NCBI GenBank assembly: GCA_947466585.1
Contig: CANIEU010000003.1
Span: 62,001 to 126,000 of the forward strand
Direction of reading: 5' to 3'
DNA: 64,000 bases
Origin: Fibrobacterota bacterium
GTDB taxonomy: Bacteria; Fibrobacterota; Fibrobacteria; UBA11236
In this document: positions 1,624-60,019 of the stretch, in pieces
Position numbering within the stretch: the first letter of the stretch is position 1
Layout: every line of letters begins with the position of its first letter
Notes under the pieces: model-generated
What the model was told of the DNA's origin: nothing
Database searches by the model: none
Seen by the model: only the letters and a program-made list of their open reading frames with translations
Position numbers and translations under genes: made by a program

Positions 1624-1631
1624 AAAAGATA
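1624..1631 (-). promoter_or_regulatory. TATCTTTT box upstream of lolC
   Basis: On the minus strand TATCTTTT ends 6 bp before the lolC ATG. It matches the TAnnTTTG-like box seen upstream of many genes here. No -33 element is evident. Confidence 0.35.
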
Positions 1632-1739
1632 GAAGGGTATTGGGCGTCTGGGTCTCGCTCCGGCGTCCCTGTTTTTCTTCGGTAACCACAGCAAATCTTC
1701 GTGCTCTGGGGTGTAGGCTTCATTCCTATTTTCCGGTGC

Positions 1740-2657
1740 ATGCTCAAGCCCTACCTCCAGCTCGTCCGTATTCCTGCCGTGTTCAGTTCGCTCTCCAATG
1801 CCTGGGCGGGTTGGTGGATCGGCGGGGCGGTGGCCCTTTCGGTCGGCGCGACCCGCGCACCCGTGACCTCCTTGATTCTCGGCCTGATCGCGGCCGCCGC
1901 GTACCTGCTCGCCGGTATGGCGCTTAACGACATCGCGGACCTCGAGGTCGACCGTAAGGAACGCCCGTCGCGCCCCTTGCCGGCCGGCGCCGTTCCGGTC
2001 CGGAGCGCGTGGCTACTCGTGATCGGGTTGTTCGCACTCGGGTTGTTGTGTCAGTCGATCGCCAATCCGGTCAGCGCAGTGGTGGGACTCCTTCTCGTCG
2101 CAGCGATCTTTCTGTATAACTTCGTACTGAAGGGCACGGCGCTCGGTCCTTTATCGATGGGCCTTTGCCGCGCACTCAACCTCGCCGGTGCGATGGCGCT
2201 CGGGTTCCCTTCCCTGAAAACCTTTCTTGCATTGCCGGTGCCGGTATATGGCGCCTTGGTCTCGTTGGGTTTTTACGTGGCGCTCGTGACCTATCTCGCG
2301 CGCGACGAAGTAACAGGGAACTCCGTCTCGCGCGCACGTGTGTTTTTTATGGGGTTCGCGGCCTGGTTTTCGGCTTGGGCCGCCTTCGCTGCGACAAGCC
2401 ATTCGTTGGCTTCCTTGGGAGTCGTTGCGGTTCTGGTGGTGCACTTGTTCCTGATGAAGGACGCACTGGCGGGTTTGCGCACGATGCCAGGGTCCCCCGC
2501 GACGACGGGTAAAACCGTAGGGGGAATGCTCGGCAGCATGCCGGCCACAGATGCCTTGGCCATGTTCGCCGCCGGTGTTTTTTGGCCGGCCGCGCTGGCG
2601 GGCTTGGTGTGGATGCTGCCCGGAAAATGGCTCGCACGGCGTTTTTACTCGACCTGA
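1740..2657 (+). CDS. UbiA-family prenyltransferase, EboC-like
   Basis: A 305-residue integral membrane protein with about eight hydrophobic segments. The first aspartate-rich motif of the UbiA family is intact (NDIADLEVDRKERPSRPLPAG region, about residues 60-80), as is the YNFVLKGTALGP loop. The second motif is not the usual DxxD: it reads YLARDEVTGN (about residues 184-193), which resembles my memory of EboC proteins more than 4-hydroxybenzoate prenyltransferases. UbiA enzymes transfer prenyl chains to small aromatic or sugar acceptors. The other ebo genes (EboA, B, D, E, F) are not visible nearby, so this is an orphan with unknown substrate. It is transcribed divergently from lolC. The start MLKPYLQLVRIP was chosen over an upstream ATG at 1701 because homologues begin just before this first helix. 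Confidence 0.75.
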   Translation: MLKPYLQLVRIPAVFSSLSNAWAGWWIGGAVALSVGATRAPVTSLILGLIAAAAYLLAGMALNDIADLEVDRKERPSRPLPAGAVPVRSAWLLVIGLFALGLLCQSIANPVSAVVGLLLVAAIFLYNFVLKGTALGPLSMGLCRALNLAGAMALGFPSLKTFLALPVPVYGALVSLGFYVALVTYLARDEVTGNSVSRARVFFMGFAAWFSAWAAFAATSHSLASLGVVAVLVVHLFLMKDALAGLRTMPGSPATTGKTVGGMLGSMPATDALAMFAAGVFWPAALAGLVWMLPGKWLARRFYST

Positions 2658-2736
2658 ATTTTTGCGACCGTCCCGTGTATATTGTCGCCCGTATTGTAGG
2701 CTGTAAGCCGAATTGTTGATTCCACCGGAGGTGCCC

Positions 2737-3330
2737 ATGCCAAAATTTTTTAATGCCGTCCTTTTCATCCCGCTCTTCGCCCTCGCTCTGGCCGCTCCCG
2801 TGCGGGTGCATGCGGAGGATGTGAACCTGAACAGCCATCCCGAAACCACAACGGTCGCCCTCAGCCGATATTCCATCGGGCCGGGCCTCGGCGTGGTGGG
2901 TGCCACCTCCGGGGATATGGCGGACATCAGCAAACAGCTGCTCTCCCTCTCGTTGGTGCAGTCGATCCGTTTTCAAGAGAACTGGGATCTTGGAATCGAT
3001 GCGGAGTTTTGGACTCCGCGGGACAATTACGGGCTGACGATGTCGGCGTCCTACCTGTTCGGAAACGCCGCCTTCCGCCCGTTCATCGGCGCGGGCGCGG
3101 GCATCCGCTCGCTTGACTACAAAGGTGAGCCGATGGGCGACGGGCTGGGCGTAGAAGGGTTGGTGCAAGCCGGTTTGTACCTCGATGTGCTCGACAACAT
3201 GCAGCTGCGCGTTCGCGTACCTTATCGCGTCATCGCCAACAGCCACGGCGATCAGGCGGTCGGCCTCGACATCTCGTTGCTGTTCTCGTCTTCCCAGCGC
3301 AAGACCAAGGTGCGGAAGCTGACGTATTAG
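2737..3330 (+). CDS. Secreted small outer-membrane beta-barrel protein, uncharacterised
   Basis: A 197-residue protein. Residues 1-26 are a clear Sec signal peptide ending VRVHA-ED. The mature part alternates polar and hydrophobic residues and is rich in glycine and aromatics (for example YGLTMSASYLFGN and FRPFIGAGAGIRS), as in 8-stranded OmpA/OmpW-like barrels. The start is fixed by a good ribosome site, CCGGAGGTG (2725-2733), just upstream of ATG 2737. It stands alone and ends in a strong terminator shared with the convergent gene. No specific function can be assigned. Confidence 0.7.
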   Translation: MPKFFNAVLFIPLFALALAAPVRVHAEDVNLNSHPETTTVALSRYSIGPGLGVVGATSGDMADISKQLLSLSLVQSIRFQENWDLGIDAEFWTPRDNYGLTMSASYLFGNAAFRPFIGAGAGIRSLDYKGEPMGDGLGVEGLVQAGLYLDVLDNMQLRVRVPYRVIANSHGDQAVGLDISLLFSSSQRKTKVRKLTY

Positions 3331-3345
3331 CGGATTCCGGATGCT

Positions 3346-3387
3346 CAACAAAAAAGGCGTCCGCTATTGCGGGCGCCTTTTTTGTTG
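3346..3387. terminator. Bidirectional rho-independent terminator
   Basis: A perfect 14-bp stem (3346-3359 with 3374-3387) has A-rich and T-rich ends, so it ends transcription in both directions. It sits between the convergent genes ending at 3330 and 3403. The loop has its own CCGC/GCGG pairing. Confidence 0.9.
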
Positions 3388-3402
3388 TTGGGTTTCTGTG
3401 AA

Positions 3403-3993
3403 CTACTTCGTCGGGCAAACCGCCGGTGCTTGTTGCGAGATCCACACCCGTGCACGCGCCTTCACGTCGTTGACGGCCGCTTCGCGCGAGGTGAAGTAGT
3501 ACTGACGTTTGCTACGGCCCCCGTAGGCATCGCCTTCGGTCGAGTTCGACACGAAGGTGTCGGTATGGCGCAGCAGTTTTTCGACTTCGCGGAACACCGG
3601 CGCCTGACCTTGGAGGCTGCGGGTGGTGACGATGATCAAATCCTTTTCGCGCGTGAGATAGGTCACATCCAGCCGTGCGCTGTAAGACTTGACCCACTCG
3701 TTGCGGCCGGCCACCCCACCCACGCCCTGTACGAAGATCGAGGAGGAGGAGACGAGGGCATCCACGATTTCGGGATTCGGGAGGGAAACGATGCAGTCTT
3801 GCACTTTTTCACGGGTGATTTCGCTGCTGCCGTCCGAAGTGGCGGTGGCCGAAACGACCGTGATGTTTTTGTTCTGGGTGCTGGTGCGCGCGACGCTTTC
3901 GGCAACGGACTCTCCGGCGTGGACCGCCGCTGTACCCAAGGCGCAGACGGCCAAAACAGCCGTAGAGAGAGTGGAAATACGGGTGGTTTTCAT
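3403..3993 (-). CDS. Uncharacterised secreted periplasmic protein
   Basis: A 196-residue protein with an N-terminal signal peptide (residues 1-26, ending AAVHA-GES). The mature part is soluble, with no membrane segment, two cysteines (in QDCIVSLP and at the C-terminal AVCPTK) and an EVEKLLRHTDTF helix. I do not recognise the family. It is divergent from the LpoB-like/COG3014 pair. In other bacteria that pair sits beside further small envelope proteins, so a role in the same envelope process is possible but only inferred. A ribosome site GGAG lies 6 bp before the ATG. A box TAGTTTAC about 35 bp upstream may be the promoter. Confidence 0.65.
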   Translation of the reverse strand: MKTTRISTLSTAVLAVCALGTAAVHAGESVAESVARTSTQNKNITVVSATATSDGSSEITREKVQDCIVSLPNPEIVDALVSSSSIFVQGVGGVAGRNEWVKSYSARLDVTYLTREKDLIIVTTRSLQGQAPVFREVEKLLRHTDTFVSNSTEGDAYGGRSKRQYYFTSREAAVNDVKARARVWISQQAPAVCPTK

Positions 3994-4220
3994 GACGATC
4001 TCCGGGAAGTGGTTACCGGGTAAACTACAAAGGGACCCGGCCTGTGGGGATGGTTATGGGGACCGGGCCTTTTTGCCATGGGCGAGGAGGTTGTGGCCGG
4101 GAGAGATAATCGGTGTAATCGAAGAAACTCGAACCTCATGCACCGTGCGCCTTGCGCCTTTCGGCCCATGGGCCGGATTCGACCATTTATCTAAACTATT
4201 GGCCTATCCAGGAGGTTTCC

Positions 4221-4823
4221 ATGAACCGCATGTTTTTTCGCGCCACCGGCCTTGCCCTTGCGACCCTAATGCTGGCAGGGTGCGGCGGCACCAAGGTCAG
4301 CCGCGTCACCCACGACAGCGTCATCGATTTGTCGGGCCGCTGGAATGACACCGATTCGCGGCTGGTCGCCGAAGAAATTTTGCGTGACTGCCTGAATTCT
4401 TCGTGGTATAACACGTACACGGCGCAGGGGCAGATCCCCACCGTGATCGTCGGCGAGGTGCGCAACCGCAGCCACGAGCACATCGACGCGGAAACCTTCA
4501 TCAAGGACATGGAGCGCACGCTGATCAACTCCGGCAAGGTGGATTTCGTCGCCAACAAGACCGAACGCGACCAACTGCGTGAGGAAAAGGCGGATCAGGC
4601 CACCAATTCTTCGGTGGAAACGCGTAATCAGGCCGGCGAAGAGAGCGGTGCCAAGTTGATGCTCATCGGCACAATCAACTCGATCGTGGACCGGGAGGGC
4701 GGCAAGTCGGTCGTGTTCTATCAGGTCAACTTGGAGCTGGTGCAGATCGATTCGAACCGCAAGCTTTGGATCGGTGACAAGAAGATCAAGAAATACGTGA
4801 CGAAGAGCTCCTCTAGCCTTTAA
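4221..4823 (+). CDS. lpoB: LpoB-like outer-membrane lipoprotein (penicillin-binding protein activator family)
   Basis: A 200-residue lipoprotein. Residues 1-19 end in the lipobox LAGC, giving cysteine 20 as the acylated residue. The rest matches the LpoB fold in outline: VIVGEVRNRSHEHIDAETF, DMERTLINSGKVDFVA, KLMLIGTINSIVDREGG and a closing LELVQIDSNRKLWIGDKKIKK. In enterobacteria LpoB reaches through the periplasm to activate PBP1B. Here the partner synthase is not in the window. Start set by the very strong ribosome site GGAGGT (4211-4216). It is followed 19 bp later by the COG3014 lipoprotein gene, a pairing also seen next to lpoB in gammaproteobacteria (from memory). Confidence 0.75.
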   Translation: MNRMFFRATGLALATLMLAGCGGTKVSRVTHDSVIDLSGRWNDTDSRLVAEEILRDCLNSSWYNTYTAQGQIPTVIVGEVRNRSHEHIDAETFIKDMERTLINSGKVDFVANKTERDQLREEKADQATNSSVETRNQAGEESGAKLMLIGTINSIVDREGGKSVVFYQVNLELVQIDSNRKLWIGDKKIKKYVTKSSSSL

Positions 4824-4842
4824 GCGTCGTCCCGTCCCTGCC

Positions 4843-6300
4843 ATGCGCCCTTGGGCCGTCCTGATCTTTTGCGCATCCCTGTTTATGGGGTGCGCCAATA
4901 CCGCCTTGGTGCGTTACGAGAAGATCGCCAAAAAGGCCGGCTCCCAGAATTATCTGGACGCGGCCGGCATGATCCGCAAACATGCGGATGCGCTGTACGG
5001 CAGCCGCAGCGATCTGCTTTACAACATGGATCTCGGGCTGCTTTACCACTATGCGGGCCGGTACGATAGCAGCACGATCTTTTTGGGGCGCGCCGCCGAC
5101 AAGTACGATGCGCTTTACACGCGCTCGATTTCGAACGAGGCGGCATCGCTGGTGGTGAACGACAACACGCGCCCTTACCGCAGTCGTCCGTACGAGATGA
5201 TGTGGCTGCGTGTGATTCAGGCGTTCAATTATCTGGCGTTGGGGCGGCCCGACGATGCGCGCGTCGAAATGCGGCAGGGGCAGATATTGCTCGACGCCTT
5301 GCACGGCACGGCAGGCAAGGGTTCCAACGCCTATCGCGAAGATCCACTGTACCGCGGCACGGCCGCGCTAGTGTATGATCTGCTTGGCGAACGCGACGAT
5401 GCGGCCATCTCCGTTTACTTTGCCGTGAAGGCACATCGTGACGACCACACCGCCGTACCTCCGATGATCGGAAGGTTGGCTTGCCGCCTGTTGCGCGCAG
5501 CCGACCGTCGTGACGATATCCGTTTGCTCGAACTGGACTGCCCTTCGACGCTGTCGGGAAAGCGCGCCGTGGATTCGGCGGAAGCCGCCACGGCCTCGAC
5601 GGAGACCGGCGATGTCGTGGTGGTCGGTATGTTGGGAAGGTCGCCTGCGATCGGCGAGACCAGTTTTCAGGGCACCTGGATCCGCGACGGCTTGCTGGTG
5701 TACAGTTACCGCGACGCGAATACCGGCAAGGTGGTCACCGATGCGCTTCCAGCACCGGGACTGCCGGTATCCGAATCCAAAAAGGCGGGTCAGGGCGGCC
5801 GCACGCGTTCTGGAACCACCCTCTCCCTCAAGTGGGCGATGCCTGCGCTGCGTGAAGTGCCGACACAGTCACGGGTACTGAAAGTGGCCGGGCCCGCGGT
5901 AGTCACGGGAGAAGCTTGGGGCGACACCCATGATTTGCTGGAGCGGGATCTTGCCGAAAACTGGAATTCGGTTCTGGTGCGCACGGTGATCCGAGTCGGG
6001 CTCCGCACGCTGGCGACCGAAAAAGCAAAGTCCGAAATGCGCACCGACAATCCGTTGTTGAATCTGATCACGAATGTGGGCGTGGACTTTCTTTCGGGAC
6101 AACTGGAACAGGCGGACGCACGGTCTTGGTTTTTGCTTCCGCGCACGGTTCAGTTTGCGAGGCTCACGTTGCCGGTGGGGCGTCAAACCTTGCAGATCGG
6201 GGCGGAGAATGAGTCGGGTGGCACGGTACTCGCCGAAACGCGCGAGATCGAGGTACGTGCGGGCCAAACCTCTTTCGTGTTCTTCAATTCGTTGAAGTGA
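4843..6300 (+). CDS. COG3014-family lipoprotein
   Basis: A 485-residue protein with a lipoprotein signal (LFMGC, cysteine 17). The first half is helical and TPR-like: NYLDAAGMIRKHADALYGS, a Leu-Leu-Tyr-His-Tyr-Ala-Gly repeat, and RPYEMMWLRVIQAFNYLALG (near residues 105-130). This is characteristic of COG3014. The second half is beta-rich and ends in FVFFNSLK. No enzymatic motif is apparent. It probably forms an operon with the LpoB-like gene upstream; the gap is 19 bp and no promoter box is visible in it. Function in the family is not established; an envelope assembly role is inferred from the neighbour. The ribosome site is weak, consistent with coupling to the upstream gene. Confidence 0.7.
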   Translation: MRPWAVLIFCASLFMGCANTALVRYEKIAKKAGSQNYLDAAGMIRKHADALYGSRSDLLYNMDLGLLYHYAGRYDSSTIFLGRAADKYDALYTRSISNEAASLVVNDNTRPYRSRPYEMMWLRVIQAFNYLALGRPDDARVEMRQGQILLDALHGTAGKGSNAYREDPLYRGTAALVYDLLGERDDAAISVYFAVKAHRDDHTAVPPMIGRLACRLLRAADRRDDIRLLELDCPSTLSGKRAVDSAEAATASTETGDVVVVGMLGRSPAIGETSFQGTWIRDGLLVYSYRDANTGKVVTDALPAPGLPVSESKKAGQGGRTRSGTTLSLKWAMPALREVPTQSRVLKVAGPAVVTGEAWGDTHDLLERDLAENWNSVLVRTVIRVGLRTLATEKAKSEMRTDNPLLNLITNVGVDFLSGQLEQADARSWFLLPRTVQFARLTLPVGRQTLQIGAENESGGTVLAETREIEVRAGQTSFVFFNSLK

Positions 6301-7617: not shown

Positions 7618-7622
7618 AATCG

Positions 7623-8789: not shown

Positions 8790-8805
8790 GGGGGGTAGAA
8801 GGTAG

Positions 8806-11777: not shown

Positions 11778-11785
11778 TACCTTTG
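11778..11785 (+). promoter_or_regulatory. TACCTTTG box upstream of hom
   Basis: TACCTTTG ends 7 bp before the hom ATG at 11793, and there is no Shine-Dalgarno. It matches the Bacteroidota -7 consensus exactly. If real, the mRNA is nearly leaderless at this start, or translation begins at 11808. Confidence 0.45.
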
Positions 11786-14801: not shown

Positions 14802-14809
14802 TACCTTTC
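14802..14809 (+). promoter_or_regulatory. TACCTTTC box upstream of the sulfatase-fold gene
   Basis: TACCTTTC lies 45 bp upstream of ATG 14855 in the divergent gap with the MazG-like gene, and fits the recurrent TAnnTTTG-like box. Confidence 0.35.
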
Positions 14810-16786: not shown

Positions 16787-16851
16787 TCGGGTCGAGTCCT
16801 CACCTCGACCGTTCTTCGTCCGGTCCAATTTCCGGTCTGGAACTAGTTTTC

Positions 16852-24775: not shown

Positions 24776-25588
24776 TTACGTTCCGAGCGCCTGCAGGTAG
24801 CCTTCGTATTTCTCGCGAAGGACGTCCTTGTTTTTGTTGCGGCGGATGCGGCGCAGGGCCTGATCGCGCAACTGGCGCACACGCTCGTGCGAGATGTTCA
24901 GCGTCTCGCCCACTTCGCGCAGCGTCTGCGGCGCTTCGTGATTGATGCCGAAAAGACCCTTGATGACCTGCGCCTCGCGCTCGGGCAGCTCGGAGAGCAA
25001 GTCCTTGGCGAGGTGTTCCACGGCCTGGATCTCGGCTTCGGACTCCGGATTCACGGCCTTTTCGTCGGCGAGAACTTCCTGATAGGTCGTCTTGGTGTCG
25101 GTCTTGAGCGGCGCATCGAAGCTGATGCCGGCTTCACCGAGCTGGATCAGCTCGCGAATGTCATCCGACAACTCCTTACCCTTCGACTTTTCCTTGAGCG
25201 CCTTGCGCACGCGCAGGTGCTGGTTGGCCGGCAAACGGATCAGCGAACCCTGCTCGTTGATGGCGCGCGTGATGTAGGCCTTGATCCACCAGACGGCGTA
25301 CGAAATGAACTTGAGGCCGCGCGAGTGATCGAAGCTCTCGATGGCGCGGATGAGGCCCATGGCGCCTTCGCTCACCAGATCGGGGAGAGGAATGGGGCAA
25401 CCACGGTACTGGAGGGCGACCTTCAGCACGAACCGCATGTTCGCGGAAACCAGCTTTTCGCGCGCAGCGCGATTCCCTTCGCGGCAGAGTTGGAAGAGCC
25501 TGTGCTCATCCTTCCGGTCGATGGGACTGGTTTTGCGGATATCTTCGAGATATCGCTTGAGTGTTTCGTCTGTGGTATCGAAGGTCAT
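24776..25588 (-). CDS. RNA polymerase sigma factor, sigma-70 family (RpoD-like, no region 1.1)
   Basis: A 270-residue sigma factor. Region 1.2 is DETLKRYLEDIRKTSPIDRK (residues 7-26). Region 2 includes NMRFVLKVALQYRG and the -10-recognition stretch KFISYAVWWIKAYITRA (about residues 92-108). Region 3 follows, and region 4 has LPEREAQVIKGLFGI then EVGETLNISHERVRQLRDQA (about residues 230-249). Region 1.1 is absent, as in the short primary sigmas of Bacteroidota. A second sigma of the same size lies 2.8 kb away; this one diverges more from the primary consensus in region 2, so I think it is an alternative (group 2-like) sigma. Its mRNA likely starts with a 10-bp hairpin (25616-25643). Confidence 0.92.
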   Translation of the reverse strand: MTFDTTDETLKRYLEDIRKTSPIDRKDEHRLFQLCREGNRAAREKLVSANMRFVLKVALQYRGCPIPLPDLVSEGAMGLIRAIESFDHSRGLKFISYAVWWIKAYITRAINEQGSLIRLPANQHLRVRKALKEKSKGKELSDDIRELIQLGEAGISFDAPLKTDTKTTYQEVLADEKAVNPESEAEIQAVEHLAKDLLSELPEREAQVIKGLFGINHEAPQTLREVGETLNISHERVRQLRDQALRRIRRNKNKDVLREKYEGYLQALGT

Positions 25589-25615: not shown

Positions 25616-25643
25616 CTTGCTGAATCAATAGGAATTCAGCAAG
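25616..25643 (-). promoter_or_regulatory. 5'-leader hairpin of the sigma factor gene
   Basis: CTTGCTGAAT pairs perfectly with ATTCAGCAAG across an 8-base loop. It starts exactly at the end of a TATGTTTC box (minus strand, 25643-25650), so the predicted transcript would begin within the hairpin, about 28 bp or more before the ATG. It may stabilise the message or bind a regulator. Confidence 0.5.
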
Positions 25644-25650
25644 AAACATA
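25643..25650 (-). promoter_or_regulatory. TATGTTTC box upstream of the sigma factor gene
   Basis: Minus-strand TATGTTTC, fitting the TAnnTTTG-like box, in an AT-richer gap (25589-25870) that otherwise shows no gene. Confidence 0.4.
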
Positions 25651-25870: not shown

Positions 25871-26728
25871 TTATCGCACCGGAATAGGCCCCAAGCGCAG
25901 GAAAAGCGCCGCAAACTCTTCAACAGAGAGATCCTCGGCGCGACTGTCCGGGCGCAGTCCGAGTTCTTCGAGATGGCGGGCCGCCTCGGACTTGCCGTAA
26001 AAAGCCTCGAGTACGTTCGAGAGCTTTTTGCGGCGCTGGGAAAAGGCCAGGTCCACAAAAGGTTTGAAGCCCGGATCGGTGCAGATGGGGGTTTCGCGAG
26101 GTGTGAGCCGGAGAGTGGCCGACCAAACGTTGGGGCGTGGGCGAAACGCGTCGGGGGAAACCTTGCGCAACAGCTCCGCGGTGGCCCAGTTCTGCACCAT
26201 CACGGTGAGGAATCCGAAGTCGCGTGAATGCGGTTTTCCGCAGATGCGCTTTGCCACCTCGAACTGCACCATGATCTGGAGCGAGAGGCAGCGCGGAAGG
26301 CGCGGCAGCAATCCGAGTAAGATCGGAGCCGCGCGATTGTAGGGCAGGTTGCCGACCACGAGCGGCTTTTGGCCCGGTTCGGGCGCGTGTTGGTCCAGGA
26401 TCTCCTCCCAGTCCACGCGAGTGGCATCGGTTTGCACGACGTCGAGATTGCCCCATTGCGGATGGTTGTTGAGGTGTTCCACCCACTTGGTGTCGATCTC
26501 GAGCGCGGTGAGTTTGCGGCAGCGCGGCGCAAGGCGGCGGGTCAAAGCACCTTGTCCGGGACCGATTTCGATGATCCAATCGGAAGGGTTGGATTCGACG
26601 TCTTCGCAAATCCCGCGGATCACCGCTTCGTCGACCAGGAAGTTTTGCCCGAATTTCCAGCGATTTTTACGGTCTTCGTCGAGGGGAGCATTTTTGGAGG
26701 AAGGCTTGCGCGCGGAAGGTTTGGGCAT
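25871..26728 (-). CDS. rsmA: 16S rRNA dimethyladenosine transferase (RsmA/KsgA)
   Basis: A 285-residue SAM-dependent enzyme that dimethylates two adjacent adenines near the 3' end of 16S rRNA. Hallmarks: KFGQNFLVDEAVI (residues 25-37), the SAM loop IIEIGPGQGALTRRL (near residues 52-66), VVQTDATRVDW, the NLPYN catalytic motif, and a C-terminal FVDLAFSQRRKKLSNVL. It has a lysine-rich N-terminal tail before the core. Start at 26728; the longer frame to 27694 is antisense to mrp. A TATCTTTC box (26733-26740) ends 4 bp before the ATG, with no Shine-Dalgarno, suggesting a leaderless mRNA. Confidence 0.95.
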   Translation of the reverse strand: MPKPSARKPSSKNAPLDEDRKNRWKFGQNFLVDEAVIRGICEDVESNPSDWIIEIGPGQGALTRRLAPRCRKLTALEIDTKWVEHLNNHPQWGNLDVVQTDATRVDWEEILDQHAPEPGQKPLVVGNLPYNRAAPILLGLLPRLPRCLSLQIMVQFEVAKRICGKPHSRDFGFLTVMVQNWATAELLRKVSPDAFRPRPNVWSATLRLTPRETPICTDPGFKPFVDLAFSQRRKKLSNVLEAFYGKSEAARHLEELGLRPDSRAEDLSVEEFAALFLRLGPIPVR

Positions 26729-26731
26729 TGG

Positions 26732-26808
26732 GGAAAGATAGCCCCCCGCACCCGATGTGGCGCATGCGACCGGAACGGGATGTGCGCTTCCGGCGAGGCT
26801 ATCTTTCC
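26732..26808. promoter_or_regulatory. Symmetric divergent promoter region with 12-bp inverted repeat
   Basis: GGAAAGATAGCC (26732-26743) and its exact complement GGCTATCTTTCC (26797-26808) face outward toward rsmA and mrp. Each copy holds a TATCTTTC box near the start of the gene it faces. The symmetry suggests twin promoters or two sites for one regulator. Confidence 0.5.
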
Positions 26809-26827
26809 GCTCCCGCCTTGGAAAACA

Positions 26828-27943
26828 ATGCAGAACCCTATGACCGTTACACCCGACCTGGTGCTCGAGGCCTTGCGCCACGTGCAGGATCCCGATTTGC
26901 ACCGCGATATCGTCGCACTCGGTTTCATCAAGAATCTCGCTATCACCGACGGAGCCGTTCGCTTCGACGTGGAGCTCACCACCCCCGCCTGCCCGGTCAA
27001 GGAAGACCTGAAGCGTCAATGCGAGCACATGGTGAGCGCGCTTCCCGGTGTAAAGTCGGTCGAGGTGGTCATGACGGCTCAGCCCGCCGGCGGGTCTTCC
27101 GAAAAGCGCACGGAGTTGTTGAAGGATGTGCGGCACGTGCTGGCTGTTGCCAGCGGCAAAGGCGGTGTTGGCAAAAGCACCGCGACGGCGAATCTCGCCA
27201 TCGCGCTGGCGAACACGGGCGCGAAGGTGGGCGTGCTCGACGCGGATATTTACGGACCATCGATGAGCCTGATGTTCGGCGTGCTGCAGGCGCCCGAGAT
27301 CAACGAAAACAAAAAGCTCGTTCCCGTGACTTCGCGCGGTATCAAGATCGTGTCGATGGCCATGTTCGATGAAGGCGAAAAGGGCGTGGTCTGGCGCGGC
27401 CCGATGGTTTCGCAGATGATCCAGAACTTCGTGCACAACGTGGTGTGGGGCGAACTCGACTACCTGTTGATTGACATGCCTCCGGGAACCGGCGATGTGC
27501 AGCTGACCTTGACGCAGACGGCGCCGATCTCGGGTGCTGTGATTCTCACCACTCCGCAGGATGTGAGCGTGCTCGACGCGAAAAAGGGACTGCGCATGTT
27601 CCAGAGCGTGAACGTTCCGGTGCTGGGCATTGTGGAGAACATGAGCTATTTCATTTGCGACCAATGCGAGAAGAAGCATTACATCTTTCGCCAAGGCGGA
27701 GGAAAACGCGTCGCCGAATCGCTGGGCGTTCCCTTTCTCGGCGAGATCCCGCTCGAACCCGAGGTGGCCGAAGGCGGCGACGCGGGCACTCCCATCGTGG
27801 AGCGGCGCCCGAATTCACCGGCGTCCCTCGCCTACAATGCGATCGCGGGGACCTTGGCATCCTCGCTGTCCATCCTCTCCGCCGGTCGCGCTGGCCTGCT
27901 CGGGGAATTCGACCTGAAGTGGGAAGAGGTACCCGAGCCATGA
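26828..27943 (+). CDS. mrp: Mrp/NBP35-family iron-sulfur carrier ATPase
   Basis: A 371-residue P-loop protein. Residues 1-95 form a MIP18/DUF59 domain (VQDPDLHRDIVALGF, TTPACPVKEDL). The ATPase domain has the deviant Walker A VASGKGGVGKSTATANLA (about residues 105-122), VLDADIYGPS, DYLLIDMPPGTGD and the cluster-binding CxxC in SYFICDQCEKKH. ApbC/Mrp proteins bind and transfer Fe-S clusters in the cytosol. The stop overlaps the start of a DUF971 gene (ATGA, 27940-27943); DUF971 domains are often fused to or adjacent to Mrp. Start 26828 or 26840. It is divergent from rsmA through a symmetric promoter region. Confidence 0.95.
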   Translation: MQNPMTVTPDLVLEALRHVQDPDLHRDIVALGFIKNLAITDGAVRFDVELTTPACPVKEDLKRQCEHMVSALPGVKSVEVVMTAQPAGGSSEKRTELLKDVRHVLAVASGKGGVGKSTATANLAIALANTGAKVGVLDADIYGPSMSLMFGVLQAPEINENKKLVPVTSRGIKIVSMAMFDEGEKGVVWRGPMVSQMIQNFVHNVVWGELDYLLIDMPPGTGDVQLTLTQTAPISGAVILTTPQDVSVLDAKKGLRMFQSVNVPVLGIVENMSYFICDQCEKKHYIFRQGGGKRVAESLGVPFLGEIPLEPEVAEGGDAGTPIVERRPNSPASLAYNAIAGTLASSLSILSAGRAGLLGEFDLKWEEVPEP

Positions 27944-28356: not shown

Positions 28357-28364
28357 TAGATTTG
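28357..28364 (+). promoter_or_regulatory. TAGATTTG box upstream of the second sigma factor gene
   Basis: TAGATTTG lies 43 bp before ATG 28408. CTTG at 28332-28335 is 21 bp further upstream, close to the Bacteroidota -33/-7 spacing. The leader has GAGGGAGAGAGG. Confidence 0.4.
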
Positions 28365-28407: not shown

Positions 28408-29241
28408 ATGGTTGATTTAAACGAGCAACTTTATTTTCGCGATTTGTATCGCTACCGAGTCCTGACTCCCGAAGAGGAGAAGGATTTGGTGCATCGTGTC
28501 AAGCGCGGAGACCCCACCGCGCTGAACCCGCTGATCTTGGGAAACTTGCGTTTCGTGGTTTCCATCGCGCGCCGTTACCAGGGCAAAGGCCTTTCATTGC
28601 TCGAGTTGATCAACGAAGGCAATCTCGGCCTCTACAAAGCCGCCAAACGTTACGATCCTTCGCGCGAGGTGAAGTTTATTTCCTACGCCGTGTGGTGGAT
28701 CCGTCAGTCGATTCAAAAAGCATTGTTCGAGCAGGTCGGCGCCGTGCGCATACCGCCCAACAAGCTGGCACTGGTGAACCGTTTTAAGCGCGCCCTGTTG
28801 CAAAACGGCGGTAACTACGAAAAAACCGTCTCTCTTCCCGAGTTCGAAAGCCACGAAAAAGAGATCGCCGAGATCATGGAAAAAATCGCCGACGTTTCTC
28901 TCAACGCCCCGGTGGGCGGCGAGGGCGACGGCCGCGATCCGGTGACCACCTTGCTCGACGTGCTTGGAAGCGATGGCGGTCAGGAAGTGGACGCCGAAAA
29001 GGCCGAGCTTTCCCGTTCGCTCGACTCGGTGCTGGGCCAGATGTCGGAACGCGAGGAAAAGGTTCTTCGCATGTATTACGGCATCAACTATGCGCGCGAG
29101 TTCACCCTCGATGAAATCGGCCGGGAGCTGAAACTGACCCGTGAGCGCGTTCGTCAAATCAAGAACCGCTCCCTCCGCAAGTTGCTTCGGTCCCGTGAAT
29201 CCAAGGAAAAGCTCCTGCCGTTCGTGAACGGCAACGACTGA
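28408..29241 (+). CDS. RNA polymerase sigma factor, sigma-70 family (candidate primary sigma)
   Basis: A 277-residue sigma factor without region 1.1. Region 1.2 is short (LYFRDLYRYRVLTPEEEKDL). Region 2: NLRFVVSIARRYQGKGLSL (near residues 46-64), LINEGNLGLYKAAKRYD, and the melting/-10 stretch KFISYAVWWIRQSIQKAL (about residues 90-107). Region 4 closes with MSEREEKVLRMYYGIN and ELKLTRERVRQIKNRSLR. It is the closer match to the RpoD consensus of the two sigmas in this window, and its size matches the short primary sigmas of Bacteroidota. Which of the two is essential cannot be told from sequence alone. It follows DUF971 by 150 bp with its own likely promoter. Confidence 0.92.
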   Translation: MVDLNEQLYFRDLYRYRVLTPEEEKDLVHRVKRGDPTALNPLILGNLRFVVSIARRYQGKGLSLLELINEGNLGLYKAAKRYDPSREVKFISYAVWWIRQSIQKALFEQVGAVRIPPNKLALVNRFKRALLQNGGNYEKTVSLPEFESHEKEIAEIMEKIADVSLNAPVGGEGDGRDPVTTLLDVLGSDGGQEVDAEKAELSRSLDSVLGQMSEREEKVLRMYYGINYAREFTLDEIGRELKLTRERVRQIKNRSLRKLLRSRESKEKLLPFVNGND

Positions 29242-32098: not shown

Positions 32099-32162
32099 GG
32101 TTCGGCCTTCGGGTGTGGTGCGGATGATCTCGACCGCAGGCCGATTACCTAACTTCCCTGCC

Positions 32163-33776: not shown

Positions 33777-33784
33777 TAATTTTG
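33777..33784 (+). promoter_or_regulatory. TAATTTTG box upstream of the PuuD-like gene
   Basis: TAATTTTG, an exact TAnnTTTG match, lies 37 bp before ATG 33822. The surrounding GTTCTAATT is repeated in the leader at about 35018, upstream of the sugar isomerase operon. Confidence 0.45.
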
Positions 33785-38320: not shown

Positions 38321-38328
38321 CAAAGGTA
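38321..38328 (-). promoter_or_regulatory. TACCTTTG box upstream of the RDD gene
   Basis: Minus-strand TACCTTTG ends 4 bp before the ATG at 38316. The 13-base context CTACCTTTGCCCC is repeated before the gene at 39308. Confidence 0.5.
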
Positions 38329-39271: not shown

Positions 39272-39279
39272 TACCTTTG
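39272..39279 (+). promoter_or_regulatory. TACCTTTG box upstream of the polyamine operon
   Basis: TACCTTTG lies 28 bp before ATG 39308, within CTACCTTTGCCCC, the same 13 bases that precede the RDD gene on the other strand. Confidence 0.5.
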
Positions 39280-41788: not shown

Positions 41789-41796
41789 TACATTTC
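41789..41796 (+). promoter_or_regulatory. TACATTTC box upstream of the barrel gene
   Basis: TACATTTC lies 68 bp before ATG 41865. A perfect TATAAT at 41724 is also present but has no -35 partner. Confidence 0.3.
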
Positions 41797-41864: not shown

Positions 41865-42536
41865 ATGATGCACTCTCGGTTTCAGAAATTTGTTCTCCTA
41901 GGAATTTCCTTGTTCCTCGGTGGAACCGCCAGTGCCGAGGAGGGGGCACCCCTGCCTTCGCCGACCCGTTGGGCAATGGATGCGGGATTGGGCGTGCGTC
42001 TGTGGGATCCCCAAAAGGGGACGCAAGAGGAAATCGATTATCTGGACCGGGCGCGCGTGGGCGCGGTGACCTCCTTCGAGGTGGCGGTGTTCCCCTGGGG
42101 TAGTTACGGTGCGGGCATAATGTTCGCGACCTTTCATTCCGGCACCTCCGACTCTTCCATGACCTACCTCGATCAGACCCAGCAGGCTGCGCAGGACGCG
42201 TATTTCATTCCCTATCTCGCTCCTACACTGAATGTGCAGCGAAGCTTTGCGGGCGATCGTTTCTGCTTGGTGGCCCAAGTGGGTGGGGGCGTATTCTACT
42301 ACCGTGACGAAACCAAAAAGGGGCCGTTCCCCGGGATCTCGGATGCGTTTGCGCCGGGAGCACATGTGGCCGTGTCGCTGGATTATCGTTTGCTCCCCCG
42401 ATTCGCCGTGGGGGGAGGCGTGCGCGCGCTATACGGGAAGACACCGAACCTCCGCTATAACGCGATCGATGCCGATCTTCCGCCGGTGTCGCTCTCACGC
42501 GTGGATATCACCGCCGGCGTGCGGTTTTATCCCTAG
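41865..42536 (+). CDS. Secreted outer-membrane beta-barrel protein, uncharacterised
   Basis: A 223-residue protein. Signal peptide to about residue 24 (LFLGGTASA-EEG). The mature part has eight or so amphipathic strands, for example RWAMDAGLGVRLWD, VGAVTSFEVAVFPWG, FCLVAQVGGGVFYYRDE and the final VDITAGVRFYP with a C-terminal aromatic-proline end. Resembles OmpW/OmpA-like barrels; no function can be given. It converges with recD, overlapping its end by 4 bp. Two ATG codons (41865, 41868) are possible starts. Confidence 0.65.
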   Translation: MMHSRFQKFVLLGISLFLGGTASAEEGAPLPSPTRWAMDAGLGVRLWDPQKGTQEEIDYLDRARVGAVTSFEVAVFPWGSYGAGIMFATFHSGTSDSSMTYLDQTQQAAQDAYFIPYLAPTLNVQRSFAGDRFCLVAQVGGGVFYYRDETKKGPFPGISDAFAPGAHVAVSLDYRLLPRFAVGGGVRALYGKTPNLRYNAIDADLPPVSLSRVDITAGVRFYP

Positions 42537-55517: not shown

Positions 55518-56342
55518 TCAGTTGTAGCGCTGATAGAACGTCGGCATCTGGCGTAGAATGTGCGCCTGTTTGCGGAGCACGCGGGCTGGGGGATGCACGG
55601 GCGACCACGAGCGCGGCTTGGGCAGGATAGCGGCGATCAGTGCAGCCTGTGCACGCGTGAGATGGGCCGCATCGCGCCCGAAGTAATGTCGTGCGGCGAT
55701 CGGCGCACCGTACAGGCCGTCACCGGTTTCCGCGACGTTCAGGTACACCTCGAGAATCCGCTCCTTGGGCCATAGGGTTTCGATCAGGAAGGTGAACCAC
55801 ACTTCCAGCCCCTTGCGCGTCCAGGAACGGGCCGGCCACAGGAACACGTTCTTCGCCGTTTGCTGCGAGATGGTGCTCGCACCGCGTAGGCGGGCAGGCC
55901 GACCCCCGCGCCGCTCGGCACGCGCAAGGGCGCGCTCATTGTGTGCGCGGGCCTTTTGGATCGATTCGAAATCGAAACCGTTATGCTCGTAAAATCGTTG
56001 ATCCTCTGAGGTGATCACGGCCGCCGCCATCCACGGCGAAATGCGGTCGAGCGGTTCCCAATCCTTTTTCAGCGTGAGCGGTTCGCCGGTGCGGAACTGG
56101 TCCCAGAGACGCAACACCATCAGGGGCGTGGCCGGAGGCGGCACGAAGCGGTACAGCAAAACCACGGCGACGCTGGAAACCACGAAGAATACCGTAACCC
56201 AGCGTAACAGATGGAGACCGCGCCGGAAAAGGCGCCCGGGTCCTCCCGCGCGGCGGGATGTGTCATTTCGGGACGATTCGGCTGCGTGCAACGGGTTTTC
56301 CAGGTTTTTCGGATTCCGGAACTCGAATTCGAGGTACCTCAA
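55518..56342 (-). CDS. mtgA: Monofunctional peptidoglycan glycosyltransferase
   Basis: A 274-residue GT51 enzyme with one N-terminal membrane helix (about residues 46-66) and a periplasmic catalytic domain that polymerises lipid II into glycan strands. Motifs: AAAVITSEDQRFYEHNGFD with the catalytic glutamate (near residues 107-125), RGASTISQQTAKNVFLW, RKGLEVWFTFLIETLWPKER, LEVYLNVAETGDGLYG and ARHYFGRDAAHLTRAQAALI. No transpeptidase domain, hence MtgA. The start is doubtful: the first in-frame start is TTG 56342, inside a TAACTTTG box; a second TTG lies 17 codons later. Either keeps the membrane anchor. Confidence 0.9.
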   Translation of the reverse strand: MRYLEFEFRNPKNLENPLHAAESSRNDTSRRAGGPGRLFRRGLHLLRWVTVFFVVSSVAVVLLYRFVPPPATPLMVLRLWDQFRTGEPLTLKKDWEPLDRISPWMAAAVITSEDQRFYEHNGFDFESIQKARAHNERALARAERRGGRPARLRGASTISQQTAKNVFLWPARSWTRKGLEVWFTFLIETLWPKERILEVYLNVAETGDGLYGAPIAARHYFGRDAAHLTRAQAALIAAILPKPRSWSPVHPPARVLRKQAHILRQMPTFYQRYN

Positions 56343-56347
56343 AGTTA
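56340..56347 (-). promoter_or_regulatory. TAACTTTG box overlapping the putative mtgA start
   Basis: Minus-strand TAACTTTG ends in the TTG used as the first possible mtgA start. If it is a promoter, the true start must lie downstream. Confidence 0.3.
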
Positions 56348-56463: not shown

Positions 56464-59355
56464 ATGATTTTGAACGCACTGCTCACCAAAATTTTCGGCA
56501 CCACGCACGAGCGTGAGGTCAAGCGCTTGCTTCCCCTGGTGGACGCGGTCAACGCGTTCGCCTCGCGGGTCGAAGCCTTGGATGATGCAGAACTGGTCGC
56601 CAAAACCTCCGAGTTTCGGTCGAGGCTCTCCGCCGGCGAAACCTTGGATGACCTTCTGCCGGAAGCCTTCGCCGTCTGCCGCGAAGCGGCGGACCGCCGT
56701 CTGGGCATGCTCAACATTCTGAATCCCGACTTCGGATTCGACTTCGCGGCCTTGACCCCCGCATCGCGCGCCGCCGTCGAAGAGGCCCGCCAACGCCTCG
56801 CCGACGGAACGCCGCATCCCGATCTGCTGTTTCTCGCGTCCCTGTATCACGAGATCCGCACGCTCAATCCCGAAAGCCGTTTCCCGTTCCGCTACCGTCC
56901 CTTCGACGTGCAGTTGATCGGTGGTATGGTCTTGCACGAAGGCAAGATCGCCGAAATGAAAACCGGCGAAGGCAAAACTGTGGTGGCCACGCTGCCGGTG
57001 TACCTGAACGCGCTTGCGGGCCAAGGCGTGCACGTCGTGACGGTAAACGACTATCTCGCCAAGCGCGACGCGGAGACCATGAGCCGCGTGTACCGCTTCC
57101 TCGGTCTTACCGTGGGTATCATCGTGCACGGTCTCGACGAGGCCCAGCGCAAAGAAAACTACGGCGCCGACGTGACCTACGGCACCAACAACGAATTCGG
57201 TTTCGACTACCTGCGCGACAACATGGCGCACGACATCGCCGATTGCGTGCAGCGCGAATTGAACTTCGCCATCGTCGACGAAGTGGACTCCATTCTCATC
57301 GACGAGGCGCGCACGCCCCTTATCATCTCGGGTCCCGCCGACCAGTCCACCGACAAGTACTCCAAGGCCAACGAGGTGGTGCGCCATCTGGTGCGCGATG
57401 TGCACTTCACGCTCGAAGAGAAAGACAAGCACGTCTCGCTCACCGAAGAGGGCGTCAACGTGTGCGAGCAGCAGCTCGGCCTCGAAAACCTCTACGGCGA
57501 CCTCAACGTCGAATGGGTGCACCACGTGCAGCAGGCGCTCAAGGCGTACGCGCTGTTCAAGCGCGACGTCGACTATGTCGTGCGCGACCGTCAGATTATC
57601 ATCGTCGACGAGTTCACTGGCCGCCTCATGGAAGGCCGCCGTTATTCCGAAGGGTTGCATCAAGCGATCGAGGCCAAGGAAGGCGTGCCCATCCTCCGCG
57701 AGAACCAGACGCTGGCCACCATCACCTTCCAGAACCTGTTCCGCCTTTACAAGAAGCTCGCGGGCATGACCGGTACGGCCGACACCGAAGCCACCGAGCT
57801 CATGCAGATCTACAAGCTCAAGGTGGTCGCCATCCCGACCAACCGCAACATGGTACGTTTGGATCGCGATGACGTGATCTTCAAGACAGGCGAGGCTAAG
57901 GCCAAGGCCATCGCGCAAGATATCAAGGAGCGACACGAAAAGGGACAGCCGGTGCTGGTGGGTACGGTGTCGATCGAAAAATCCGAAGAATTGTCCGCGC
58001 TGCTGAAGCGTGATGGCGTGCCGCACAACGTGTTGAACGCGAAGCAGCACGACCGTGAAGCCACGGTGATCGTGGAAGCCGGTCTCGCCGGCAAGGTCAC
58101 CATCGCCACCAACATGGCCGGCCGCGGTACTGACATCCAGCTCGGGCCCGGCGTGTCGGATCTCGGCGGCCTCTACGTGCTGGGCACCGAGCGGCACGAA
58201 AGCCGTCGTATCGACAATCAGCTGCGCGGTCGTTCGGGCCGTCAGGGCGACCCGGGCGAGTCGCAGTTCTACCTATCGCTCGAAGACGATCTCATGCGCA
58301 TCTTCGGCGGTCCCGACCGCATCATGAAGTGGATGGACCGCATGGGCGTGAAGGATGACGAGGTCATTTCGCATTCGATGGTGAACCGCGCCATCGCCAC
58401 GGCACAAAAGCGCGTCGAAGGCCAGAACTACGAAATCCGCAAACACCTGCTTGAATACGACGACGTACTCAACAAGCAGCGCACCGTGGTGTACGGCCTG
58501 CGTCGCCGTATTCTCCAAGGCGAAGAAATCCAAGACGAAATCCGCGCGCGTCTCGACGAGGCCGCCGATCTGGTGGTGGCGCCCTACGCCATCGAAGGCA
58601 ACTATCCCGAGTCGTGGGAATTGGAGAACTTCTACGCCGAGGTGAAGCGCTCCTTCGCCATCGATTACAAGATCCCCGACGACCTGCTGCAGACCCAAAC
58701 CGTTTCCGACACCGCCGAACAGGTCTCCGAGGCGATCAAGACCCGCTATGCCGAAATCGAAGAAGCGGTGGGTTCCGAAAACATGCGCGACATCGAGCGC
58801 CAGGTGTTGCTCGGCGTGATCGATATGGCCTGGCGCGAGCATTTGTACGCCATGGACGGTCTGCGCGATGCCACCCGCTTCCGCGGCTATGCGCAAAAGG
58901 ATCCGTTGCAGGAGTACAAGAAGGAAGGCTTCTCCCTGTTCGGCGCCGCGCTGGAGCGCATCGCGTTGGAGACCATCCAGCGCCTTCTGCATATCGATCC
59001 CGATTTCCTCGCTCGCCAGCAGCAGGCAATGCAGCAGGCCCGCGAGCAGGAAGCGCGCATGCGCGCCCAGTTGCAATTCAGCGCGCCCGGCGAGCCCGGC
59101 GGTGGCATTCAGGGGCCCTCGGGCGGCATATCCTCCACGCCTGCACCGCAATTCTCGGCGCCTTCCGCGTCCCAAACAGGCGGCCCCGCACGTCCGGTGG
59201 CCGGCCCCATGCCGGGCACGATGGTCCCCCGCGGATCAAATGCAGCCCAGCAGGCTCCCGGCATGAACGCCGCGTTCCGCGACGTGGGCCGCAACGATCC
59301 TTGCCCTTGCGGCAGCGGCAAGAAGTTCAAGAAGTGTCACGGAGAAGGACAGTAG
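56464..59355 (+). CDS. secA: Preprotein translocase ATPase SecA
   Basis: A 963-residue motor that pushes preproteins through SecYEG. NBD1 has QLIGGMVLHEGKIAEMKTGE then GKTVVATLP (Walker A, about residues 152-180), VTVNDYLAKRDAE and NFAIVDEVDSILIDEARTPL. NBD2 has VGTVSIEKSEELSALLKRDG, TIATNMAGRGTDIQLGPGV and IDNQLRGRSGRQGDPGESQF. The helical scaffold is intact. The C-terminal linker is rich in Pro, Gly and Gln and ends in the zinc-binding SecB/ribosome motif DPCPCGSGKKFKKCHG. Length is slightly above E. coli SecA (901). Start MILNALLTKIFG fits the family; the open frame extends upstream but is antisense to mtgA. Confidence 0.97.
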   Translation: MILNALLTKIFGTTHEREVKRLLPLVDAVNAFASRVEALDDAELVAKTSEFRSRLSAGETLDDLLPEAFAVCREAADRRLGMLNILNPDFGFDFAALTPASRAAVEEARQRLADGTPHPDLLFLASLYHEIRTLNPESRFPFRYRPFDVQLIGGMVLHEGKIAEMKTGEGKTVVATLPVYLNALAGQGVHVVTVNDYLAKRDAETMSRVYRFLGLTVGIIVHGLDEAQRKENYGADVTYGTNNEFGFDYLRDNMAHDIADCVQRELNFAIVDEVDSILIDEARTPLIISGPADQSTDKYSKANEVVRHLVRDVHFTLEEKDKHVSLTEEGVNVCEQQLGLENLYGDLNVEWVHHVQQALKAYALFKRDVDYVVRDRQIIIVDEFTGRLMEGRRYSEGLHQAIEAKEGVPILRENQTLATITFQNLFRLYKKLAGMTGTADTEATELMQIYKLKVVAIPTNRNMVRLDRDDVIFKTGEAKAKAIAQDIKERHEKGQPVLVGTVSIEKSEELSALLKRDGVPHNVLNAKQHDREATVIVEAGLAGKVTIATNMAGRGTDIQLGPGVSDLGGLYVLGTERHESRRIDNQLRGRSGRQGDPGESQFYLSLEDDLMRIFGGPDRIMKWMDRMGVKDDEVISHSMVNRAIATAQKRVEGQNYEIRKHLLEYDDVLNKQRTVVYGLRRRILQGEEIQDEIRARLDEAADLVVAPYAIEGNYPESWELENFYAEVKRSFAIDYKIPDDLLQTQTVSDTAEQVSEAIKTRYAEIEEAVGSENMRDIERQVLLGVIDMAWREHLYAMDGLRDATRFRGYAQKDPLQEYKKEGFSLFGAALERIALETIQRLLHIDPDFLARQQQAMQQAREQEARMRAQLQFSAPGEPGGGIQGPSGGISSTPAPQFSAPSASQTGGPARPVAGPMPGTMVPRGSNAAQQAPGMNAAFRDVGRNDPCPCGSGKKFKKCHGEGQ

Positions 59356-59363
59356 GGCCGAAA

Positions 59364-59993
59364 ATGTTCTTCGTCATCGAAGGCATCGACGGCGCGGGCA
59401 AGTCGACCCAGGTCGCGCTGCTCGCCGAAGCCTTGGAGGCTCGTGGCCATTCCGTGGTGCGCGTGCGCGACCCCGGCGGCACACCGCTTTCCGATCGCAT
59501 CCGCGCCTTGTTGCTCGATCCCGAAACTCCGGTGGCGCCCGCGACGGAGTTGTGTCTCTACGCCGCCGCACGCGCGCAACTCGTGCATGAAATCATCCGC
59601 CCGGCCCTCAAGGCGGGCAAGGTGGTGATCTCCGACCGGTTCACATGGTCCACCCGCGCTTATCAGGGCGGCGGTCGCGGACTGGATGCGGGGCATATCG
59701 CCGCTCTGGCCGAGGTCGCCTGCGGCGACGTTCGTCCCGCGCAGGTCTTCGTACTCGATTTGGACCCCGCCGGTCGCGAAGCCCGCATCGGCGCGCGCGC
59801 CGGAGCCGTCCGGGACCGTTTGGAGCGGGAAGGGGATGACTTCTTCAGTCGGGTGCGGCGCAGCTTTTTGGAACAGGCCGCAGAAAGCAAAGGGATGGGG
59901 CCGGGGGAAGGCATGTTGCTGTCTGCAACGCGTCCCGCCGCAGAGCTGCACGCGGAGATCCTCGACCGTGTCCTGAAGATTCTGGGCCCCTGA
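59364..59993 (+). CDS. tmk: Thymidylate kinase
   Basis: A 209-residue enzyme phosphorylating dTMP to dTDP. P-loop VIEGIDGAGKSTQVALLAEA (residues 4-23), the substrate motif VRDPGGTPLSDRIR (usually R-E-P-G-G), ISDRFTWSTRAYQGGGRGLD and a LID-like RIGARAGAVRDRLEREGDDF. Normal length. It begins 8 bp after the secA stop, so it is co-transcribed with secA. The gene then runs 31 bp to an S41 protease gene that has its own promoter-like box. Confidence 0.95.
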   Translation: MFFVIEGIDGAGKSTQVALLAEALEARGHSVVRVRDPGGTPLSDRIRALLLDPETPVAPATELCLYAAARAQLVHEIIRPALKAGKVVISDRFTWSTRAYQGGGRGLDAGHIAALAEVACGDVRPAQVFVLDLDPAGREARIGARAGAVRDRLEREGDDFFSRVRRSFLEQAAESKGMGPGEGMLLSATRPAAELHAEILDRVLKILGP

Positions 59994-60011
59994 CCCGAGG
60001 TCTGCGGTTCC

Positions 60012-60019
60012 TACATTTG
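60012..60019 (+). promoter_or_regulatory. TACATTTG box upstream of the S41 protease
   Basis: TACATTTG ends 5 bp before ATG 60025; no Shine-Dalgarno is present. It is an exact TAnnTTTG match. Confidence 0.45.

What the first reader, a model, noticed from the sequence alone, without database searches (positions are those of the whole stretch)
1624..60019. Recurrent TAnnTTTG-like box just upstream of many start codons, resembling the Bacteroidota -7 promoter element
Seen: exact TAnnTTTG before hom (11778), the RDD gene (38321, minus), the polyamine operon (39272), the S41 protease (60012), the second sigma gene (28357), the PuuD-like gene (33777) and mtgA (56340, minus). Near matches TAnnTTT(C/T) occur before lolC (1624), the sulfatase gene (14802), the first sigma gene (25643), rsmA and mrp (26733, 26800) and a barrel gene (41789). 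In several cases the box is only 4-7 bp from the start codon and no Shine-Dalgarno is present, so mRNAs may be leaderless or nearly so. Known: Bacteroidota use TTTG/TAnnTTTG promoters with a short primary sigma. Both sigmas here are also short. I do not see a conserved -33 TTTG. Inference: this lineage shares the unusual -7 element.
Basis: partly seen in the sequence, partly recalled or inferred. Interest (0 to 1): 0.7.

Follow-up and report, generated by a model that had tools for sequence, protein, structure and literature searches.

The report
Bacteroidota-type promoters on leaderless Fibrobacterota genes
A short promoter signal known from Bacteroidota sits directly in front of about a quarter of the sampled genes with upstream space in this Fibrobacter relative, so closely that their messages probably begin at the start codon itself, while other genes carry the same signal further back and use an ordinary ribosome-binding site.

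Summary
The window comes from a Fibrobacterota-like genome (nearest named relative of its sigma factor: Fibrobacter succinogenes, 62%). In 844 kb of that genome TAnnTTTG/C is 20- to 50-fold denser upstream of genes than inside them, and de novo motif search returns cTAHHTTTS. Of 545 genes with an upstream gap of at least 25 bp, 107 have TAnnTT placed so that the start codon falls at about +1 to +6 (14 expected); a mixture model gives 25%. Spacing 4 is commonest, exactly where +1 lies if the box spans -12 to -5 as mapped in Flavobacterium. Near-box genes lack Shine-Dalgarno (8%); far-box genes have it (57%). Near boxes are common on divergent genes (25%) and rare inside operons (5%), as expected of promoters. 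The hom box is at the leaderless position in seven same-family genomes, but about 30 nt back, with a Shine-Dalgarno, in Fibrobacteraceae. E. coli shows no peak. Best reading: Bacteroidota-type primary-sigma promoters, with abundant leaderless genes beside Shine-Dalgarno-led ones. No transcription start has been mapped.

The parts
11778..11785 (+). box TACCTTTG, 7 nt before ATG of hom (11793): leaderless-range promoter
   Evidence: box at the leaderless position in the same-family genomes whose starts could be read
26733..26740 (-). box TATCTTTC, 4 nt before ATG of rsmA (26728)
   Evidence: conserved as TACCTTTC at spacer 7 in the same-genus orthologue
38321..38328 (-). box TACCTTTG, 4 nt before ATG of the RDD gene (38316)
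60012..60019 (+). box TACATTTG, 5 nt before ATG of the S41 protease (60025)
1624..1631 (-). box TATCTTTT, 6 nt before ATG of an FtsX/MacB-type permease (LolC-like, 1617)
1727..1734 (+). box variant TATTTTCC, 5 nt before ATG of a UbiA-family gene (1740)
8797..8804 (-). box variant TACCTTCT, 7 nt before ATG of a DegT/DnrJ aminotransferase (8789)
16844..16851 (+). box TAGTTTTC, 9 nt before ATG of a glycosyltransferase (16861)
32150..32157 (+). box variant TAACTTCC, 5 nt before GTG of a short-chain dehydrogenase (32163)
26800..26807 (+). box TATCTTTC, 32 nt before ATG of mrp (26840): leadered promoter, divergent from the rsmA promoter
39272..39279 (+). box TACCTTTG, 28 nt before ATG of the saccharopine-dehydrogenase-like gene (39308): leadered promoter
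33777..33784 (+). box TAATTTTG, 37 nt before ATG 33822, which has a Shine-Dalgarno (AAGGAG): leadered promoter
28357..28364 (+). box TAGATTTG, 43 nt before ATG of sigma gene 2 (28408); its G at -10 departs from the TAHH rule
14802..14809 (+). box TACCTTTC, 45 nt before ATG of the sulfatase gene (14855)
25643..25650 (-). box TATGTTTC, 54 nt before ATG of sigma gene 1 (25588)
56340..56347 (-). box TAACTTTG upstream of mtgA; start codon uncertain
41789..41796 (+). box TACATTTC upstream of the gene at 41865 (start uncertain), about 68 nt away
28408..29241 (+). short primary-type sigma factor, 277 aa, regions 1.2, 2 and 4, no region 1.1; candidate reader of the box
24776..25588 (-). second short sigma-70-family factor, 270 aa, with IKAYIT in region 2.4 where sigma 2 has IRQSIQ; probably alternative

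Best explanation
The box is the core promoter element (-12 to -5) read by RNA polymerase with the short Bacteroidota-type primary sigma (probably the 277-aa protein at 28408-29241). Its form here is (c)TAHHTTTS, S being C more often than G. Genes use it in two layouts. In about a quarter of genes that need their own promoter the box lies 4-9 nt before the start codon, transcription starts at or within about five bases of the A of ATG, and a (nearly) leaderless mRNA is translated without a Shine-Dalgarno. In the others the box lies about 25-60 nt back and the leader carries a Shine-Dalgarno. Implied leaders of 6-15 nt, too short for a Shine-Dalgarno, are rare. Shown: motif, enrichment, spacing, Shine-Dalgarno partition, operon pattern, orthologue pattern. 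Inferred: that it is a promoter, which sigma reads it, where transcription starts, and that translation is leaderless.
For: Enrichment upstream and against shuffles. De novo motif without seeding by the hypothesis. Sharp spacing: first T to start codon at 12,13,14,15,16,17 = 40,29,13,15,6,4 boxes, near zero on either side; 107 genes against 14.2 expected from intergenic density (Poisson p about 1e-55); 25% by mixture model. Whole-genome, gene-caller-free: TAnnTTTS-N4-ATG 47 places, N14 5, reversed pattern 6. Geometry: the box is at -12 to -5 in F. psychrophilum (PMC9723704), so N4 puts ATG at +1. Shine-Dalgarno of 4 or more bases in 8% of near-box, 57% of far-box and 64% of gap<25 genes. Near box 25% on divergent genes, 5% operon-internal (p 1e-6), Shine-Dalgarno the opposite. 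No TTG starts among 116 near-box genes against 46 of 580 (p 3e-4). Orthologues in a same-genus genome: 5 of 8 near-box genes also near-box, against 3 of 28 others (p 0.006). hom: leaderless spacing 5-8 in seven same-family genomes, box 30-31 nt back plus GGAGA/GGAG in Fibrobacteraceae genomes. E. coli control: no peak. Sigma 2 carries the FCB-type FISYAVWWIRQS motif.
Against: No RNA data. Start codons come from my own gene finder, not an annotation. 844 kb of 2.24 Mb was examined closely. The shortage of Shine-Dalgarno in near-box genes is partly forced, because the box occupies the place. The ZOOPS fit converged on this motif at the leaderless position only in G000 and the Bacteroidota control G027; the small samples of other relatives gave mixed fits.
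Confidence: 0.86

Rival explanations
1. The near box is a translation-initiation element (a U- or pyrimidine-rich site for ribosomal protein S1) and not a promoter.
For: It lies just before start codons and C/U-rich bases follow it. PMC5397173 offers S1 sites as one reading of AT-rich upstream bias in bacteria.
Against: Operon-internal genes, which need translation signals but not promoters, lack it (5% against 25%), whereas Shine-Dalgarno shows the opposite. The same TAnnTT(T) box occurs at leadered distances with a Shine-Dalgarno, and hom changes position between families. S1 sites would not need TA at fixed register.
Confidence: 0.05
2. The boxes are promoters, but start codons are mis-called and the true starts lie downstream, so the mRNAs have leaders.
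For: Start codons were predicted; a few are clearly uncertain (mtgA 56183, the gene at 41976).
Against: A caller that ignores the box finds ATG at one narrow distance from it. The raw pattern count without gene calling gives the same answer (47 against 5). For hom and rsmA the same-genus orthologue has an ATG at nearly the same place.
Confidence: 0.04
3. The near boxes are read by an alternative sigma (for example sigma 1 at 24776-25588) that defines a leaderless regulon; the primary sigma reads something else.
For: Sigma 1 shares FISYAVWW. Five Sigma70_r2 matches were found in the genome.
Against: Near and far boxes have the same core. Box genes include housekeeping genes (hom, rsmA, mrp). 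The motif equals the primary-sigma motif of Bacteroidota, and sigma 1 lacks the Q at the position of E. coli Q437.
Confidence: 0.06
4. Chance: AT-rich intergenic DNA and repeats produce the boxes.
For: The raw count in the window is not significant. Some near boxes end a heptamer array.
Against: 107 against 14 expected at fixed spacing; 104 of 536 remain after removing genes with arrays; reversed pattern 6 against 47; strand-specific (139 against 11).
Confidence: 0.01

Closest known systems
Bacteroidota -7/-33 promoter (TAnnTTTG / TTTG) of sigma-ABfr type
   Same: T-12, A-11, no G at -10/-9, T-8, T-7, T-6; reader is a short sigma without region 1.1 that shares FISYAVWWIRQS; -33 hard to see, as reported for F. 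johnsoniae (PMC7366714, PMC6847099).
   Different: -5 is C (0.47) more often than G (0.23); boxes are often at the start codon; genes also use Shine-Dalgarno. Short leaders are few in mapped Bacteroidota: 3.7% under 10 nt (PMC7366714), 5.5% leaderless (PMC9723704), about 13% at 10 nt or less (PMC6847099).
-10-adjacent leaderless promoters of Deinococcus-Thermus and Actinobacteria (TAnnnT about 12 bp before ATG)
   Same: First T 12-13 nt before the start codon, no -35, 20-30% of genes, coexistence with Shine-Dalgarno-led genes (PMC3160421, PMC12340547).
   Different: The box requires T-8 (76% T) and favours T-6, so it is the Bacteroidota and not the Pribnow form.
E. coli sigma-70 promoter (TTGACA / TATAAT)
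   Same: T-12, A-11, T-7; weak TTG at 22-24 nt upstream of the box at leadered promoters.
   Different: No A-8/A-9, TTT run at -8 to -6; no peak at the start codon in E. coli.

Membership tests
Bacteroidota -7 element | TAHHTTTG core, with no G at -10/-9 | tested here: met
   Mixture model: T .77, A .88, G .06, G .01, T .86, T .99, T .60; -5 is C .47 / G .23, so the G is relaxed.
Bacteroidota -7 element | box at -12 to -5 relative to a mapped transcription start | not testable with these tools
   No RNA data; known for F. psychrophilum and F. johnsoniae.
Bacteroidota -7 element | -33 TTTG/TTG element | tested here: inconclusive
   Absent at near boxes in G000 (4 against 4.0 control); weak at far boxes (8 against 3.6; G001 6 against 1.7).
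Bacteroidota -7 element | primary sigma without region 1.1 and with the FCB-type region 2.4 | tested here: met
   277-aa sigma 2, 42-45% identical to Bacteroidota RpoD, FISYAVWWIRQS shared.
Leaderless genes | promoter box placed so that the start codon is at or near +1 | tested here: met
   Peak at first-T distance 12-17, 107 against 14 expected.
Leaderless genes | no Shine-Dalgarno before the start codon | tested here: met
   8% against 57% at far-box genes; partly forced by the box itself.
Leaderless genes | AUG (or GUG) start, TTG excluded | tested here: met
   0 TTG in 116 near-box genes against 46 in 580.
Leaderless genes | mRNA 5' end mapped at the start codon | not testable with these tools
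   Needs 5'-end sequencing.
Sigma-70 Pribnow box TATAAT | A at -9 and -8 | tested here: not met
   -8 is T in 76% and A in 12% of near TAnnnT boxes.

The most novel reading that the evidence does not exclude
The common ancestor of the FCB group already used TAHHTTTS promoters with two translation modes, leaderless and Shine-Dalgarno-led, separated by a gap of disfavoured leader lengths (about 6-15 nt). Fibrobacterota kept both; Bacteroidota later lost Shine-Dalgarno use and most leaderless genes while keeping the promoter.
Probability: 0.25. Interest if true: 0.65.

Novelty: new variant of a known kind. Interest (0 to 1): 0.5.

Why it matters
Promoters and leaderless genes have not, as far as the searches here show, been described for Fibrobacterota, a group of plant-fibre degraders with few genetic tools. 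If right, expression cassettes for Fibrobacter relatives should carry TAHHTTTS and may omit the ribosome-binding site, E. coli promoters should fail, and gene starts can be annotated from the box. Leaderless surveys that look for a Pribnow box (PMC3160421 found 1 of 37 Bacteroidetes/Chlorobi genomes) would miss this form. The group keeps both translation modes next to Bacteroidota, which use neither widely, so it is a place to ask how Shine-Dalgarno use was lost.

Tried and rejected
Depletion of the box inside genes (34 against 77 with synonymous shuffling) was not counted as evidence, because TAnnTT in general is as depleted (388 against 748). The N4/N14 ratio is uninformative in AT-rich genomes, where chance matches dominate (G010, G016, most Bacteroidota). 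G014 (65% GC; few ATG starts called) gave unreliable gene calls and was not used. My first automatic start choice for hom orthologues failed for several genomes; only readable ones are cited. 16S was not found in the window's own genome, so the anti-Shine-Dalgarno was not read directly. Literature searches for Fibrobacter promoters or leaderless genes returned nothing specific.

Full report
WHAT WAS CHECKED. The window is G000:C3:62001-126000 of a 2.24 Mb, 28-contig assembly. Its second sigma gene is closest to Fibrobacter succinogenes and another Fibrobacter (62 and 61%), then to Ignavibacteria, Bacteroidota and Gemmatimonadota at about 41-45%, so the lineage is inferred to be Fibrobacterota. 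The raw window count is unremarkable (14 against 10.6); only position relative to genes is informative.

GENOME-SCALE TEST. I fetched about 800 kb of further stretches, joined them with the window (844 kb used) and predicted 699 genes with a coding-potential gene finder that ignores upstream motifs. TAnnTTTG occurs 0.69 times per kb in upstream intergenic DNA and 0.024 in genes, TAnnTTTC 0.997 and 0.021; both exceed dinucleotide shuffles three-fold. An EM motif search from random seeds returned cTAnnTTts as the best 10- and 12-mer. The refined matrix is c T A H(no G) H(no G) T T T S.

SPACING. Among 545 genes with a gap of at least 25 bp, TAnnTT begins 12 to 17 nt before the start codon in 107 genes; 14 are expected from intergenic density. 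The profile is 40, 29, 13, 15, 6, 4, with almost nothing at 8-11 and 18-22. Reverse-strand matches are 11 against 139 forward. A whole-genome pattern count that needs no gene calls agrees: spacer 4, 47 places; spacer 14, 5; reversed pattern, 6. E. coli through the same pipeline shows no peak. Because F. psychrophilum boxes lie at -12 to -5 (PMC9723704) and F. johnsoniae boxes have T-12, A-11, T-8, T-7, T-6, G-5 (PMC6847099), a spacer of 4 puts the A of ATG at +1.

TWO LAYOUTS. Near-box genes have a Shine-Dalgarno match of 4 or more in 8%, far-box genes (28-70 nt) in 57%, genes with gap below 25 in 64%, background 30%. Implied leaders in G000 (gap at least 75): 0-5 nt 61, 6-15 nt 7, 16-25 nt 14, 26-35 nt 23. 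The dip at 6-15 nt is seen in the two other large samples with Shine-Dalgarno use (G025 22, 6, 14, 19) and is absent in one Bacteroidota control (G027 17, 12, 13, 13) but present in the other (G026 10, 2, 12, 7), so its link to Shine-Dalgarno use is only suggestive. Near boxes are found on 25% of divergent genes and 5% of operon-internal genes, Shine-Dalgarno on 33% and 66%. Near-box genes never start with TTG (0 of 116 against 46 of 580).

ORTHOLOGUES. Of 8 near-box genes with an orthologue (gap at least 25) in the same-genus G001 stretch, 5 are near-box there, against 3 of 28 others (p 0.006). For hom, readable same-family genomes (G000, G001, G002, G003, G005, G008, G009) have TACCTTTS or TAACTTTC 5-8 nt before ATG; Fibrobacteraceae genomes (G011, G017, G018, G020, G021, G022, G025) have a TAnnTT-type box about 30 nt back with a GGAGA or GGAG-type Shine-Dalgarno. 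So the box moves with the leader, as a promoter should. This is the best single argument against a translation element.

SIGMA. Sigma 2 (28408-29241) has regions 1.2, 2 and 4, no region 1.1, and FISYAVWWIRQS shared with every FCB RpoD aligned; sigma 1 has IKAYIT in place of IRQSI. That sigma 2 reads the box is inference.

-35/-33. At near boxes in G000 TTG at -24 to -22 from the box is at control level (4 against 4.0); at far boxes it is 8 against 3.6 in G000 and 6 against 1.7 in G001. So leaderless promoters appear to lack an upstream element and leadered ones have a weak one.

SPREAD. The spacer-4 excess over spacer-14 is significant (uncorrected p<0.05) in 16 of the 18 same-class genomes searched and in both named Fibrobacter genomes, strongest in G000 and G003 (57 against 11). 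It is also seen in one Gemmatimonadetes record (22 against 0) and in Hymenobacter (76 against 30); it is absent in G010, G016 and many AT-rich Bacteroidota, where chance dominates. Leaderless-range boxes also occur in the Bacteroidota control G027 (29 of 129 genes), so the layout is not exclusive to Fibrobacterota.

COMPARISON AND VERDICT. The element is the Bacteroidota -7 element with a relaxed -5 base; the layout is that of Deinococcus and actinobacterial leaderless genes. Mapped Bacteroidota have few leaderless mRNAs (3.7%, 5.5%), and Zheng et al. found 1 of 37 Bacteroidetes/Chlorobi genomes with any. Nothing on Fibrobacterota was found in the library searched.

Noticed in passing
G000 intergenic DNA, e.g. 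C1 160600-160720, 163040-163150, 209590-209700, 243400-243510, 264835-264960, 315786-315823; C2 9794, 55786, 113669, 129838, 188549; outside the window: Arrays of degenerate 7-bp tandem repeats (CTACCGA/CTACCGT/CTACCTA; TTTCTCA/TTTCATA/TTTCTGA; AATGATG) in intergenic gaps, several as inverted pairs 70-100 bp apart; 22 per Mb in G000 but none in the stretches of a same-genus genome or of G004. They resemble cyanobacterial heptamer repeats by memory only.
   Followed up: partly
L013 / G029 (Gemmatimonadetes bacterium palsa_1233): TAnnTTTS-N4-ATG 22 places against 0 for N14: this phylum may share the box and the leaderless layout.
   Followed up: no
G027 (Chitinophagaceae bacterium LGM1): 29 of 129 sampled genes have TAnnTT 12-17 nt before the start codon, more than the few percent of leaderless mRNAs mapped in other Bacteroidota; whole-genome counts do not show it (113 against 119).
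   Followed up: partly
window 26728-26840: rsmA and mrp are divergent and their two TATCTTTC boxes lie within 111 bp; one is leaderless-range, the other implies a 28-nt leader.
   Followed up: partly
window 24776-25588: A second short sigma-70-family factor, without the Q at the position of E. coli Q437, lies near the primary-type sigma; similar pairs of matches are listed in same-genus genomes.
   Followed up: no
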